DNA from: Opeltia flavorubescens
Taxonomy: Eukaryota > Ascomycota > Lecanoromycetes > Teloschistales > Teloschistaceae
Direction of reading: 5' to 3'
NCBI GenBank assembly: GCA_000442125.1
Contig: KE546965.1
Location: 1,178,001-1,242,000 of the forward strand
Length of the DNA stretch: 64,000 nucleotides
Below, piece after piece: positions 1-42,844 of the stretch. A model generated the notes under the pieces. That model was not told the DNA's origin and searched no databases. It saw nothing but the letters and a program-made list of their open reading frames with translations. A program made the translations under genes and the position numbers. Position 1 is the first letter of the stretch. Each line of letters opens with the position of its first letter.

Positions 1-1304
1 ACACATCACCTTGAATGAAATCCCTATCTGACCCCTTTTACCAGATGGGTTTTCCCTGATGTTCCTTTCCGTGATAGTCATCGCTCGAGACGGCAATTGG
101 ACCCCCTCCAATGGCGTGGTATACGCTACTTTCCTGGCTTGTGTCTTGTGCCACGCAACAGTGGCAAGTGTCATGTCAAAAATTATGGGCAAACTTCAGA
201 CGGTTTTTGTTGTCATGAATTTCATTCTTATTGCCGCCACTATTATCGCTTTGCCCATCGGTGCCAGACATCGCCGTAATGATGGCCACTACATCTTTGC
301 GCAGACTGGCAATCTGACTACCTGGCCGACCGGCTGGGCGTTCATGATCTCCTGGCTTTCTCCAATCTGGACAATCGGAGCATTCGATTCCTGTGTTGTA
401 AGTCACAGGTGAACTCTAAACTTAGGATGACGCTAAAAGCCAGTAGCACATGTCAGAAGAAAGTTCTAACGCAACTAAAGCCGTGCCCTTTGGTATTCTT
501 ATGAGTATCGGATCATGCTGGTTTTTCGGATTTATTATCATGATCGTCCTTGCCGCGACAATGAACCCCAACCTTGAGTCTCTCCTTGATTCTCCATACG
601 GACAACCGATGGCTCAGATATACTATGACGCTGTAGGCAAGCATTCAACAATGGCGCTTATGACAATCCTATTCTCTGTGCAATTTTTAATGGGCATTTC
701 AATTATCGTTGCCGCCAGTCGTCAGACTTGGGCCTTTTCACGGGATGGTGCTCTTCCATTCAGTAAATTTTTTCGCCCAATCTCACAACGTTTCGGCTGC
801 ATTCCCCTCCGCGCAATCTGGGGCTGTGGATTCGCCGCCGCTGTTCTTGGTCTCTTGACATTAATAGCCCCGGCGGCAGCACTCGCCCTATTCAGTCTCG
901 CAGTTGCTGGAAACAATCTTGCGTGGGGTGTCCCTATCTTCGCACGGGTGGTATGGGGCCAGAAGAAATTTGTACCTGGTCCATTCTATACTGGAGACCG
1001 TCTCTCAGTGCCTATTGCTTGGACAGCAATTGTATTTCTTGTTTTTGGCATTGTGTTGAGTATGTTTCCAGCTGGAGGCCCAAATCCAACACCTGATAGT
1101 ATGAATTATACTGTTGTCATCAACTGTGCGGTCTGGGGCGGGGCATTGACATACTATTATGTATATGCTAAGCATTGGTTCAAGGGACCGGTGATCACAA
1201 TTGCGGATGACGACCTCACGGAGGAGCAGCAGGTTGACATAAGAGAGAAAGCTCTAGAGGGCCGTGTGGAGGGAGACCGGAATACCAAGCATAGACACGA
1301 CTAG
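1..1304 (+). CDS. Amino-acid/choline (APC superfamily) permease, 5' end outside the window
   Basis: The window opens inside an intron of a 12-TM APC transporter of the fungal GABA/choline/amino-acid class (Uga4/Hnm1-like). Coding starts at 45 after a CAG acceptor at 42-44, is interrupted by a 49-nt intron (398-446, GTAAGT...TAG), and stops at 1302-1304. Splicing joins FDSCV to HMSEES, recreating the family motif FDSCVHxSEE. About 400 residues are present; the usual length is about 520, so the first two or three membrane segments lie upstream. Several hydrophobic segments and a short charged cytosolic tail are visible. It should import a nitrogenous solute at the plasma membrane. The substrate (GABA, choline or another amino acid) cannot be decided. 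Family assignment is sure, substrate is not. Confidence 0.9.
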
Positions 1305-1567
1305 GGTGTTGGCGTAGGTAGGAATACTGGAGGTTATTGTGTAGACGATGGGGCGGCTTTAGTGGCAAACGTAGGAATAACATGTCAAGGATTAAGACAA
1401 CCAGTGCAGCAAGTTGTTCGCATCCCAGGATATAATCTGACGTGTTGATGACTTGACCTACTGCTAAACGAAGAGGCCTTTTTTGCGTAAATCAAGCTGC
1501 GAAATCAGATGGTTGATTTTAAGGTTGCGTGGAGTCCATCCGGAGACCGGATGGTATGACCCCTTGG

Positions 1568-1605
1568 CATGGCGCCCGATTGCGCTTAGCGCGCTCGCTT
1601 CAGCT
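1568..1605 (-). repeat. Short GC-rich dispersed repeat, copy 1
   Basis: About 38 bp rich in GCGC and ending in GGCGCC. Read on the minus strand it matches 10011-10049 at roughly 32 of 38 positions, with one indel. The copy sits in the gap between the permease and the hairpin region. Family unknown. Confidence 0.5.
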
Positions 1606-1800
1606 AGAGTAGAAGGCACGTGACCCACATTGAAACTAAGGTACTGGATCCGTTCCTCGCTAGCTTTCAACCAACCATTGTTCACATGTTTACTACTTAC
1701 CTTTTAGCCACGATCTTTTTACCTCTGCATCAATGTCATTTTCAGTATACTCACTTCACTTTCCTAAGACGAACAACAGGACTGCTGTCCAGCACATCAG

Positions 1801-1840
1801 GTATCTTCACATGATTAGCGTTTTCTGCTGACTGTTGCAG
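1801..1840 (+). other. Probable 40-nt intron of a non-coding transcript
   Basis: GTATCT donor, a CTGAC branch-like motif, then a TTGCAG acceptor. No convincing reading frame flanks it, so it would belong to a non-coding or leader transcript running into the hairpin array at 1931-2225. It agrees with plus-strand transcription of that array. Confidence 0.4.
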
Positions 1841-1930
1841 TGAACATCTCGTTTGGGCATTCTGGGGGCTACATATCATTTATGATGATTTGACGTTGTG
1901 TCCTTTCATCGATGGGACTTTGTTCCTCAT

Positions 1931-2251
1931 ACTCTGTCTGGGGACAGAGTGATGGCTCAATTAACATCTTGAACTGGCCGATTGTGTCATGCGACGGATG
2001 GTCCTTGTTCTTTAACACTCAGTCTGGGGACTGAGCGTGGGAAGCGACTACTAGCCTGGGGGCTACTGTCACAAGGGTAACCCGATGGACTAGTCTGGGG
2101 ACTAGAACATTGGGGCAGGACGGCCTGGGGGCTGGATCTGAAACAGGGTACAATTCAGTCCTATGGGATTTGCAAGTGTATCTGCGTATCGTATCTGAGT
2201 TCTGGGGAATTCAGGTATGGTGCGTCATCGTACTTCTCGGCTTGTCCGAGA
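1931..2251 (+). ncRNA. Candidate structured RNA: array of CUGGGG-loop hairpins
   Basis: Six stem-loops share the exact hexaloop CTGGGG but have different, self-complementary arms: 1931-1950 (7 bp), 2018-2035 (6 bp), 2052-2065 (4 bp), 2090-2105 (5 bp), 2121-2134 (4 bp, one G-U) and 2184-2225 (18 uninterrupted pairs, six of them G-U). The loop-closing pair is always pyrimidine-purine. A seventh hairpin with another loop (CTTGT, 6-bp stem) lies at 2235-2251. The G-U pairs work only in plus-strand RNA, which gives the direction. No credible ORF covers the stretch. The loop fits the CNGG hairpin bound by SAM-domain proteins of the Smaug/Vts1 family (established for that family; the link here is inference). 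It could be a free lncRNA or part of a long UTR. Confidence 0.55.
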
Positions 2252-2885
2252 TTACGGAGGCGCGTTTGGCATGTTACTTTGTTGCCTACGGTTCTACATC
2301 ACTAAAGGGAGCTGGATATACTCTAGCAGTCGCTGGTAAACAGTCAGATTAGAACTTTTACACCAACCACCACATGATGGAGGATGAGAAGACTTTTGTC
2401 TCTACAAAGACAGTCAAAGCAATTGCAGGAAGTCCGACAGGTTTCTCGAGACTTATATAGAAGCCAACTCTTGCGAATTTACAGCGCTATTTTGGTGAGG
2501 ATTTGCAGAAGCTACTTCGACGTCTGTCGGACTAGACTATTGGCATCAACCCTCGACATTCGTGGTCAACTATCGGTGCTAAGCGTGATATGCAACAGCT
2601 TTAATCGCCTTGAAGAAAGCCTTTCAAGATTACAGATTTCGAAACATCGAGCTCCTTCGATGCGAGATCGTAGGGATCTTCCAATGAGTGATTAATCGCT
2701 TGTAAGATACAAATGCTGAACGAGCAGTATGCGTCTACGTAGTGGGGAAAGTCGAAAACAAAACATATTGCATAGCACGTCTATCAATGGGTATCATCTA
2801 TGCTGTAACCATAATGCCCGCTCCTCGTAAATCCAATGTCACAACCATTAGAAACCGCATTGTATGTACAACTCTCTTTATCAGA
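2252..2885. other. Intergenic, no convincing gene
   Basis: Only short frames without homology or splice support were seen. One possible long-range helix pairs 2431-2442 with 2522-2533 (10 Watson-Crick and 2 G-U pairs), so the structured RNA may extend here. The end of this stretch is the 3' side of the minus-strand histidine kinase gene. Confidence 0.4.
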
Positions 2886-5800
2886 TCATTTCTGGTCGTC
2901 CAAGCCTCCATGAGCTTTCCAGTTGTCTAACAGCCGACCTACTTGACGGAAAGACACAGGCTTGGTCATATACAAGTCTACTCCGCATGCGAACGCTTCA
3001 CTGTGATCGCGACCAGACGCGAGACCCGTCAAGGCAATGATCATTGCTGGATTAGATGGTTGATCGCGGTCACGGGTCTTTTCGAGCTCACGAATGGCGC
3101 GTGTGGCTTCGAAGCCGTTCATGACTGGCATTGATAGATCCTGGAAGTCTGTATTAGCTCATGTTCTAGAAAATAATGGTCATTGGTCCTGTGTTCGAAG
3201 CACCCTTACCATGAAGATGATATCGTAACCTTGTTCATGAATTCTGGCAGCTTCTACTGCTAGGCTTCCATCTTCAACAGAGTCAACGAATTCGTACTGA
3301 CGTTTATGCAGGAAAGTCTGGAGAAGTCGACGATTAATCTCGTTATCATCGACCACGAGTATCCTAGGTGATCGTTTCTCAACGTTATCGTCTGCTTGCG
3401 ATATTGGGGGCGCCCGCTCCGTTGTTTCGATATGAGTCGGCTCTTGTTTGGCAACTAGAGGAACATTCACAGCTACTTCCGCGTCATCTGGTGCAACTGA
3501 TGTTGCTAGCTGATCCTGTCTCGCCGCAGCGGGAGCGAATGGAAGGGTTGACCGGAAGATTGGCTCTGTTCTACGGCTACTGAGCTTTGGTCGAGCCGCG
3601 AAGGCCGAACGCGGCGTGTCAGCTCCAGATCCGCTGCTCCCCTGCGATGGGAAAGGAAAGTCCCCACGACTTTCAGTAGATGATCCTGATAGAGCAGTGC
3701 CTAAAGCCATCCGAGCATTACTCGACACGCTTGCCGTCACGGATCCATTTGTTCGAAGTTGTATTATCGGCGTTGTTTCATCGCCAGTATCCATGGTCAC
3801 TGGGCTGTATGCAGGATTGACTGCATCATGCTCAAACGTCCGAGGGCTCTGTATCGTCGACTGTGTTTGTGGCGTAGGATCGGCCGCAAGTTGATCTGCT
3901 TTCTCCAACGATAGTCTGATCGCTTTGGCCAATTTATATGGTCCAAATGGCGTTGACATTGATTCGACGGCTCCAGAATACAGCGTGTGGATAACCTGCG
4001 GAAGATGAGTCTTGCTGGATAGTACCAAAAGAGCCGGGCCAGGCTGTAAACGCTTGAGTAATTCTGGTAGGTCATATTCCTCTACTATTACGACATCACA
4101 TAGATGTTCCAGTGGATTTGGTTCATAGGGTAACATGAACCATTCCTTAACATAGTAACGAGCGGCTCGGCAGGTCTCGGTCTCTTCATTGGGATGAGAG
4201 ATATACATCGAGACCGTCCTTGAAGGATAATTGGTCTGCAGAATGCTGATGGAGTTCTCTTGCATCTTGTCAGGTGAACCCATGGAGCTTGGAGTTGATA
4301 CCTCGGTACCGCTAGCTGCCCGACTGAGAGGAATTTGGACATGAACTTTAGTGCCTTTATCAACTTCACTCTTGATGTCGATCGTGCCTTCAAGCATGGT
4401 GACGATACTGCGAACAATTGACAAGCCAAGTCCGGTTCCATTGGCAAGCGCATCCTCTTGTGAAAAGGCTGTGTATAGCCCTGTTCGTAAATAGTCGCTA
4501 GAGATACCTTTCCCGGTATCTGTGACTGAGATATCCAAGATGCTGTCCTTGCTATGCTCGCTCTCAACTAGGTCCAGCACAGAGCTCGGCAGTCGAAGCC
4601 TCAAGCTGACCACGATTTTGCCAGTGGTGGTATACTTTAATGAATTGCCGAAAATATTCATGATCACTCGTCTCAAAGCTCCAGGTTGGGTTGTGAACAA
4701 ATAGTCGCCATTGGCTATGTCAAGCACCACTTCAATATTCTTGAAACTCTTGAGGTGAAATGAACCTCCTAATTGTGATTGATGAGATAGGGAGAGCCCG
4801 CGTTCAGATGTCCTTCCTCTCTGGCCTGCAGAGACATCTGTGATATCGGCTGATGAAAGACCTCTGAACATTTGGCCGGCATAAACGCCTTCCACAACCT
4901 CCTCAACTATTGCTGCAACATCGGTAACAGCATATATGCTCATCATTGGGGGTGCCTCCTTGGCCACTGCTCTTTTGGCGGCCACGCTGATGACAGATCG
5001 ACTTCCCGATTTTGGTTTTCTTACCGCGTTCCGCCAGTTGCGTTCGAATGAGGCGATTTTGGAGTAATCGAGTATATGGTCGATCGTGTCAAGCAGTGTC
5101 CTGCCACAGCTCGATATTGTATCCACAAGGCTCTCCTGAAATGCATCGAACTTGGTTTCACAAAGAAATTCCGCACTGCCCAATATACCGTGTAGGGGAG
5201 ATCTCAGCTCATGAGAGATACTGCCAATGAAGTCACTCTTCTGTTTGCTTTCGTATATCGAAGACAAGCGTGAGATCTTGAATCGCTATCGTAAGCTCAG
5301 GTAGCTCCTTTGAATTTTCAGTCAAACTTACTTCTGCCATGATACTATTTCCAAAAGCAGTCACAAATTGTAATCCGGCCTCGATCGAATAGTTCCGATT
5401 TCCAGACCAACAGAAACAACCTGCGAACCACCTTGAGATGCTAGCATCCCATAGCGGGACGAAGATGAGCTCGTACGCTGAAAGAAGTCAGGTCATCCTA
5501 GCCAAGATGGTGTTGGTGGTTTACCATTGGGGAAGCATTTTCGTAGGGCTTCTTTCTCAATTTGCTTTCTAGACGGTCGCGTTCGCCGCTGCCCTCCGGA
5601 ATCGAGCGCGCGCATTTCATCCTCTTCTGATGTCGACATCTCGTCATCAAAGATCCATACTTTGCCTCGTGGATAATAATGAAGAAGGCTTTGGAGAAAT
5701 TGCTCGGCTGGAGGTGTGAAAAGGTCGGAAACCGTGATATCATCCCTGGGTAGTAGCGATGCCTTTGAGCATGATGAGCTTATGACTCCTGCACTCTTCG

Positions 5801-41744: not shown

Positions 41745-42844
41745 ATGCGTGCCTCAATCCTCATCTCCGCGTGCTTTGCCGCTATAGCTCTGGCCCAAAA
41801 TTGTGGTCCTGCTTATGGCAATCAAAAATGTGCTGCTGGAAAATGCTGTACGTCACAAATTTCCCTTGCCAATACCTATATCTTTTCCTAGCACTACGAT
41901 CTGAGAGCTAATCTGTGAAATTTCCTTTGAACAGGCAGTCAGTATGGATGGGTAAGCACAACCTGGAATACATAAATCAAACATCCTAGAGCAATCTCGC
42001 TTTCTTTCAAGGGATTCAATCAAAATAAGCTGAAACAATTGCTAACCCTCACTCGTCTACTGCCAACAGTGTGATGTAACACCCGCCCACTGCGATCCCA
42101 AGACCTGCCAGAAGTCCTTTTCAGGCGCCGGCTCAAGCTGTGCTGTTCGTATACCATCTCCTTCGATGACCACTTCGAGAAACCCCGTGGAACCCGTGGA
42201 ACCCATGGAACCCGTGGAACCCATGGAACCCGTGGCCGATAATCCTCTTTTCCCTCCTCCGCCTCCTGGTTCTAATGGAGTACTCTTTCCACTCCATTTG
42301 CCGAAGGCGGGTTCTCATATTCCTCTTACTGACTACTGGCGTCTTCTAGGCTGGTACTACTCCCACAAGCCCCACTGGACCTTATACGTCTTCAATCCCG
42401 AACATCGATGTTTGCGGACATGCTCAGGGTGGCGTGAAGTGCCCTGGCGCTGGGTCTAATGGTTACTTCTACCGCTGCTGCAGCTCTGCCGGACACTGTG
42501 GTCCCAAGAATGATGTATGTCTTTCGCAAACTTCACATCGATAAATTAGCTTTACTGATCCTGTTTCCTCATTACAGATTCAAGACCAAGCCCTCTATTG
42601 CGGAACCGGTTGCCAGGGCGGCTATGGCGATTGCTCTCTCACCAAGAAGCCCCCGACTTCTCCTGCAACACCCCCCAAGATTGTTGGCGCAGGTGATACT
42701 TGCGGTCCTATTGTCAACGCCAAGTGTGGTTCCGGGCTATGCTGTAGCGGCAGCAACTTCTGCGGTACTGGAGCGGACTTCTGTGGTGCTGCCAACTGGT
42801 GCCAGCCTAAATGGGGTACTTGCTCTGGCGCGAAATTGTTGTAG
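41745..42844 (+). CDS. Secreted protein with three chitin-binding (CBM18, hevein-type) domains
   Basis: Predicted 253 residues in five exons: 41745-41847, 41935-41951, 42070-42279, 42350-42514, 42578-42844. The signal peptide ends near ALAQ. Domain 1 starts NCGPAYGNQKCAAGKCC, continues SQYGWC across two introns, and ends GAGSSC. Domain 2 spans VCGHAQGGVKC, RCCSSAGHCG and YCGTGCQGGYGDC. Domain 3 spans DTCGPIVNAKCGSGLCC and NFCGTGADFCG. The eight-Cys hevein spacing is clear in 1 and 3. Domains 1 and 2 are joined by a Pro/Glu-rich linker encoded by a 9-bp minisatellite. Such proteins bind chitin in the wall and may shield hyphae from chitinases. No catalytic domain. The donor of intron 3 (GTACTC at 42280) was chosen for length and branch site. 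Confidence 0.82.
42184..42235 (+). repeat. 9-bp coding minisatellite (Pro-Val/Met-Glu repeats)
   Basis: Units CCCGTGGAA and CCCATGGAA alternate, about 5.8 copies. In the frame of the CBM18 protein they encode Pro-Val-Glu and Pro-Met-Glu in the linker after domain 1. Confidence 0.9.

What the first reader, a model, noticed from the sequence alone, without database searches (positions are those of the whole stretch)
1931..2225. Six hairpins with an identical CUGGGG loop and covarying stems
Within 295 nt, six stem-loops keep the loop CTGGGG exactly while the arms differ and compensate: ACTCTGT/ACAGAGT, CTCAGT/ACTGAG, TAGC/GCTA, CTAGT/ACTAG, CGGC/GCTG, and an 18-pair stem with six G-U pairs. Different arms with the same loop rule out a simple DNA motif or tandem repeat and point to RNA structure. 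The G-U pairs work only in plus-strand RNA. The loop fits CNGG(N), the hairpin read by SAM-domain Smaug/Vts1 proteins, so this may be a dense Vts1 target, a decoy (sponge) RNA or a strongly regulated UTR. I know of no described fungal RNA of this form.
Basis: partly seen in the sequence, partly recalled or inferred. Interest (0 to 1): 0.8.

Follow-up and report, generated by a model that had tools for sequence, protein, structure and literature searches.

The report
Six fungal hairpins, one shared loop
Between two fungal genes lies a 295-base stretch that can fold into six hairpins with different stems but exactly the same loop, which looks like a docking array for an RNA-binding protein, although neither the partner nor even the transcribed strand is known.

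Summary
Six CTGGGG words (1938, 2024, 2056, 2095, 2125, 2202) each sit between pairing arms of different sequence. Random-sequence controls give at most 3 hairpins sharing a hexamer loop, against 6 observed. Aligned on the loop, each of the four inner pairs changes on both sides in at least one copy, and 24 of 24 cells pair. The array lies in a 1.6-kb noncoding-looking spacer between convergent amino-acid permease and histidine-kinase genes. No Rfam match.

First, the strand is not settled: hairpins 5 and 6 favour plus, but hairpins 1-3 stand out more from shuffles on minus, which closes all six loops at probability 0.85 or more. Second, Smaug/Vts1 fits by letters only: the computed fold is C(UGGG)G, the free hexaloop has probability 0.008 or less, and loop positions its consensus leaves free are also invariant.

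Best explanation: a structured RNA presenting six copies of one loop to a loop-binding partner. No fungal relatives were reachable; cross-species covariation and expression are untested. Multivalent hairpin arrays are a known kind; this one matched nothing I could search.

The parts
1930..1951 (+). Hairpin 1: 7 Watson-Crick pairs (8 with a terminal U-G) around CTGGGG 1938-1943
2018..2035 (+). Hairpin 2: 6 pairs around CTGGGG 2024-2029; beyond an A-C opposition two more pairs, so that the stem is longer and unbroken if read on the minus strand
2052..2065 (+). Hairpin 3: 4 pairs around CTGGGG 2056-2061; weak on plus (loop-closing probability 0.06-0.65 by context), closed at 0.99 or more on minus
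2083..2112 (+). Hairpin 4: 5 pairs around CTGGGG 2095-2100, a 2x2 internal loop, then 5 further pairs (one G-U)
2121..2134 (+). Hairpin 5: 4 pairs (one G-U) around CTGGGG 2125-2130; forms only partly in context on plus (0.07-0.65)
2184..2225 (+). Hairpin 6: 18-pair stem with six G-U pairs around CTGGGG 2202-2207; with the inner C-G pair (19 pairs) the longest uninterrupted stem with a 3-8 nt loop found in the window, both strands scanned
1305..2885 (.). Spacer holding the array, between the permease ORF (447-1304, +) and the histidine-kinase gene (-; its last ORF, 2886-3158, is assigned to it by reading order, an inference); over the array no frame reaches the codon score of the neighbouring genes

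Best explanation
The stretch 1930-2225 is a structured module of a transcript, most likely a plus-strand noncoding RNA or a long 3' UTR in the spacer. It presents six copies of one apical loop, C(UGGG)G, on stems whose sequence is free but whose pairing is kept. The constant loop is the recognition surface for one partner, most likely a loop-binding protein, and the six copies give multivalent binding: a platform, an mRNA-control element or a decoy. Shown here: the hairpins, their non-chance clustering, covariation among copies, and a noncoding-looking context. Inferred: transcription, strand, a protein partner, and its effect.
For: Six same-loop hairpins against at most 3 in random controls. 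Four of four inner pairs change on both sides in at least one copy, 24 of 24 cells pair, covariation score 1.067 against 0.335 shuffled (0 of 500 shuffles reach it) and 0.05-0.20 in the six slid controls. With six pairs: 88.9% paired, six of six pairs changed on both sides, score 0.933 against 0.298 shuffled and 0.06-0.27 slid. A covariance model of the six finds no seventh copy in the window: next best 12.8 bits, E 1.2, against 22.0-27.1 bits for the six, which match it by construction. The stretch folds better than all 100 shuffles on either strand (z -3.41 plus, -5.51 minus). An 18-pair stem with six G-U and no other mismatch leans to plus-strand RNA. No frame over the array scores like the neighbouring genes.
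Against: No transcription data and no relatives. Some covariation measures are less extreme: 'further pair types' is reached by 60 of 500 and 26 of 500 shuffles, and one slid control has four pairs changed on both sides. Hairpins 3 and 5 compete poorly with other folds on plus; hairpin 3 is no better than shuffles there (z +1.0). The minus strand closes all six loops at 0.85 or more. The G-U excess has P 0.009 with hairpin 6 extended to its full length, but 0.056 over 12 fixed positions and 0.25 for hairpins 1-5 alone. The six copies may share ancestry, so they are not independent. Only exact promoter and poly(A) words were looked for: no TATAWAW or AATAAA on plus in the spacer, one CACGTG at 1617.
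Confidence: 0.5

Rival explanations
1. Same array, but read on the minus strand: part of a long 3' UTR or downstream RNA of the histidine-kinase gene, presenting C(CCCA)G loops, for example to a poly(C)-binding KH-type protein (partner guessed from general knowledge).
For: Minus-strand closing probability 0.85-1.00 for all six loops in four contexts, pair span limited to 120 nt; at the same limit plus hairpins 3 and 5 reach 0.25-0.65 and 0.07-0.65. Region z -5.51 against -3.41; hairpins 1, 2 and 3 have lower z on minus.
Against: Hairpins 5 and 6 are weak on minus (-4.4 and -4.9 against -13.4 and -25.6 kcal/mol); the six G-U pairs of hairpin 6 become A-C mismatches.
Confidence: 0.22
2. Dense Smaug/Vts1 (SAM-domain) target or decoy. 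This overlaps the best explanation: it names the partner.
For: Loop letters fit CNGGN(0-4); CUGG performed better than the other three variants for Smaug; bound mRNAs had a median summed SRE score of 25.9 against 2.4 for unbound ones, so many sites per transcript are usual (PMC4053848, section 9).
Against: The published search needs CNGG at the 5' end of a loop of 4-8 nt; here the open hexaloop has probability 0.001-0.008 because C1 pairs with G6. G before the loop 0 of 6 (a preference only). Positions 2, 5 and 6 are invariant without need. Caveat: the energy model has no cross-loop C1-G4 pair and no bound state.
Confidence: 0.15
3. DNA element: a cluster of CreA/Mig1-type carbon-repressor sites (SYGGRG includes CTGGGG).
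For: CTGGGG is listed as a CreA motif in aflatoxin gene promoters (PMC6071284, passages); the spacer holds 11 SYGGRG words, all on plus, against a window mean of 3.6 per kb on both strands.
Against: Does not explain the pairing arms: 3 of 224 other SYGGRG words in the window have arms of 4 or more pairs, against 6 of 6 here. The site lies downstream of two convergent genes, not in an evident promoter. The six use only one of the eight permitted words.
Confidence: 0.1
4. Not a functional RNA: remnant of a duplicated palindrome, with arms re-matched by template-switch repair or gene conversion.
For: Four of six stems have 4 to 7 unbroken Watson-Crick pairs next to the loop; such repair can perfect palindromes (general knowledge).
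Against: Would give Watson-Crick stems, not an 18-pair stem with six G-U. Spacing is irregular (86, 32, 39, 30, 77). In the repeat search the array shows only a 12-nt recurring core, besides one 19-nt, 74% match between 1849 and 2189.
Confidence: 0.08
5. Six G-tracts forming a G-quadruplex, with hairpins incidental.
For: Every loop carries GGGG; 10 runs of four or more G on plus in the spacer, against one run of C.
Against: Does not require the invariant C and U, nor pairing arms.
Confidence: 0.03

Closest known systems
Smaug recognition elements (SRE; CNGGN0-4 loops bound by Smaug/Vts1 SAM domains)
   Same: Several hairpins per RNA, constant loop letters on non-specific stems, CUGG preferred
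   Different: Invariance extends to all six loop bases; the loop is computed closed as C(UGGG)G; no G before the loop
Lentiviral TAR hexaloop (CUGGGA in HIV-1)
   Same: First five of six loop letters, CUGGG; a known protein-docking loop (loop letters seen in PMC11885821 passages; cyclin T1 contact recalled)
   Different: A viral leader element with a bulge for Tat (recalled); no homology claimed; here six copies in a fungal spacer
Multivalent hairpin RNAs: bacterial CsrB/RsmZ (recalled) and Drosophila roX tandem stem-loops (only the reference title seen, in PMC10926079)
   Same: Repeated hairpins on one RNA presenting a common motif
   Different: Different motif and host, and no evidence here of the partner
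17 conserved structural RNAs of fungi (PMC8216456; abstract, outline and passages)
   Same: Covariation-supported fungal structures, four of them intergenic
   Different: In the abstract and passages seen these are H/ACA snoRNAs, single-hairpin intergenic structures and UTR or intron structures; the string UGGG does not occur in the main text (figures and supplements not seen) and no same-loop array is mentioned

Membership tests
Smaug/Vts1 SRE | Loop letters CNGGN0-4 | tested here: met
   CUGGGG in 6 of 6
Smaug/Vts1 SRE | CNGG exposed at the 5' end of an open 4-8 nt loop in the ensemble | tested here: not met
   Hexaloop probability 0.001-0.008 in all six, 3000 sampled structures each at 25 and 37 C over 1860-2300; the energy model knows no bound state
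Smaug/Vts1 SRE | Preferred G just 5' of the loop (preference, not requirement) | tested here: not met
   T or C in 6 of 6; preference
Smaug/Vts1 SRE | Bound by a SAM-domain protein in the same organism | not testable with these tools
   No genome held for the window; no binding data
CreA/Mig1 DNA site cluster | SYGGRG words | tested here: met
   11 in the spacer
CreA/Mig1 DNA site cluster | Lies in a promoter of a regulated gene | tested here: inconclusive
   Both neighbours converge on the spacer; an unannotated promoter is not excluded
Any Rfam 15 family | Score at or above gathering | tested here: not met
   0 matches in the window; best of 3 weak spacer matches E 5.7
Conserved structural RNA | Covariation across species | not testable with these tools
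   No related fungal locus found in the collections searched, which are not fungal; covariation among the six copies only

The most novel reading that the evidence does not exclude
A fungal noncoding RNA that works as a multivalent platform or sponge built from six covarying hairpins with an invariant C(UGGG)G loop, read by a partner protein whose specificity is not yet described.
Probability: 0.3. Interest if true: 0.8.

Novelty: new variant of a known kind. Interest (0 to 1): 0.55.

Why it matters
If expressed, it would be a eukaryotic counterpart of bacterial hairpin-sponge RNAs and a ready-made bait for finding the loop's reader. Arms that change in pairs around a fixed hexamer are what selection on RNA shape would leave, and here the pattern can be seen inside one locus.

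Tried and rejected
Known RNA families: none. Protein-coding array: a codon score trained on nine ORFs of the window (both neighbours included) gives a best frame of -0.02 to 0.09 in the four 300-nt windows touching the array, against 0.12-0.18 for 450-1349 (+) and 2850-4049 (-). The one stop-to-stop ORF of 80 aa or more overlapping the array, 2035-2352 (+), has no methionine in its translation. Telomerase template and Pol III B-box: no exact words in the spacer. A simple tandem repeat: the recurring core is 12 nt.

Of these 120, two (L117, L079) had four or more armed CTGGGG within 300 nt; both are tandem repeats with near-identical arms in each copy, so not the same thing. Loci with three (for example L036, L007) were not looked at further. 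In all 120 loci about 2.5% of 1397 CTGGGG words had arms of 4 or more pairs. A stricter pattern in genome contigs gave 0; a second scan there was allowed and not used. Distant blastn of the spacer in phages and plasmids gave no match. None of these collections is fungal, so absence there says little.

Papers: searches showed no described fungal RNA of this form in the rows listed. Searches matched over 3000 papers each and only the top 20 and 10 were listed; the library lacks most subscription journals. Searches were for CreA and TAR.

Full report
What is there. Six CTGGGG words at 1938, 2024, 2056, 2095, 2125 and 2202 are each flanked by complementary arms of different sequence. None of the other 23 CTGGGG words in the window (13 plus, 10 minus) has an arm of more than 3 pairs. 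CTGGGG itself is not over-represented in the window: 29 against 30.9 expected.

Is it chance? No. With any hexamer allowed as the shared loop, the most same-loop hairpins (4 or more pairs) within 300 nt was 2 in 27 and 1 in 3 of 30 Markov copies of the window (one strand scanned), against 6 here. In 2000 Markov copies of the 1581-nt spacer the maximum was 1, 2 or 3 (1641, 358 and 1 copies).

Covariation among copies. Aligned without gaps on the loop, the four inner pairs are formed in 24 of 24 cells and each changes on both sides at least once; the covariation score is 1.067 against 0.335 in shuffles (0 of 500 reach it) and at most 0.20 with the partner slid. At six pairs, 88.9% of 36 cells pair and the score is 0.933 against at most 0.267 slid. 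Less extreme measures: the number of pair types is reached by 60 of 500 and 26 of 500 shuffles, and the number of pairs changed on both sides by 5 of 500 and 3 of 500. This is covariation between copies at one locus, not between species, and the copies may be related. A covariance model built from them finds no further copy in the window: next best 12.8 bits, E 1.2.

Shape of the loop. The fold closes the invariant C and the last invariant G into a pair, leaving a UGGG tetraloop. In 3000 sampled structures at each of 25 and 37 C this state has probability 0.93-0.995 for hairpins 1, 2, 4 and 6, 0.69-0.76 for hairpin 5 and 0.23-0.35 for hairpin 3; the open hexaloop has 0.001-0.008. The recognition surface is therefore better written C(UGGG)G.

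Which strand? Unsettled. For plus: hairpins 5 and 6 are much more stable there (-13.4 against -4.4, -25.6 against -4.9 kcal/mol), and no shuffle of 300 folds as well as hairpin 6 (z -6.9). G-U makes up 14 of 33 non-Watson-Crick positions when hairpin 6 is counted to its full 18 pairs (P about 0.009 from local composition), 11 of 30 over 12 fixed positions per hairpin (P 0.056), and 8 of 27 in hairpins 1-5 alone (P 0.25, counts); so this evidence is essentially hairpin 6. For minus: hairpins 1, 2 and 3 have lower z there, all six loops close at 0.85 or more in four contexts, whereas hairpins 3 and 5 range from 0.06 to 0.65 on plus (minus was run only with pair span limited to 120 nt), and the region's z is -5.51 against -3.41. 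I put plus at roughly two to one, a judgement.

Context. The array lies in a spacer of about 1.6 kb. To the left a plus-strand amino-acid permease ORF ends at 1304; to the right a minus-strand gene with HisKA, HATPase and receiver domains reads towards it. A codon-usage score trained on nine ORFs of the window, both neighbours among them, gives a best frame of -0.02 to 0.09 in windows touching the array, against 0.12-0.18 inside the neighbouring genes. Transcription was not tested. The organism is a fungus by its genes (for example the AIM3/BBC1 domain; the inference is mine); the species is not known.

Mechanism. Arms that may vary as long as they pair, around a loop that may not vary, is the signature expected of a hairpin recognised through its loop. 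Six copies in 295 nt point to multivalency: a protein platform, an mRNA-control element or a decoy. The partner is unknown. Smaug/Vts1 fits the consensus letters and the preferred U2, but the published search procedure (PMC4053848, section 9 and passages), which counts open CNGG loops, would on these computed folds score the six near zero (inferred; their pipeline was not run), and the invariance of U2, G5 and G6 exceeds what that consensus asks. The CUGGG core also recalls the HIV-1 TAR loop CUGGGA (PMC11885821, passages), an analogy of loop letters only. CTGGGG is also a CreA DNA site (PMC6071284, passages), but only 3 of 224 other SYGGRG words in the window have pairing arms, so a DNA-site cluster does not explain the stems.

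Known or new. No Rfam family matches. The listed rows of six paper searches showed no such fungal RNA. The seen parts of a screen of five fungal genomes (PMC8216456: abstract, outline, passages) describe no such array. Multivalent hairpin RNAs are a known kind, so I rate this a new variant of a known kind, with expression and conservation as the open tests.

Noticed in passing
2213-2235 (+): Part of the 3' arm of hairpin 6 (2213-2222) can instead pair with 2226-2235 as a 10-pair hairpin with a 3-nt loop, so the two are mutually exclusive; in a 101-nt fold hairpin 6 wins.
   Followed up: partly
1536-1554: A perfect 8-pair inverted repeat with a 3-nt loop, unrelated to the CTGGGG set.
   Followed up: no
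1617-1622: A CACGTG E-box in the spacer upstream of the array; a possible promoter element of an unannotated transcript.
   Followed up: no
42184-42236: A 9-bp tandem repeat gives a second 'same-loop' signal (GAACC); in one frame it reads as a Pro-Val/Met-Glu repeat, so it looks like a repeat and not an RNA array.
   Followed up: partly
12226 (-): The second-longest uninterrupted hairpin stem found in the window, 17 pairs with a 4-nt loop.
   Followed up: no
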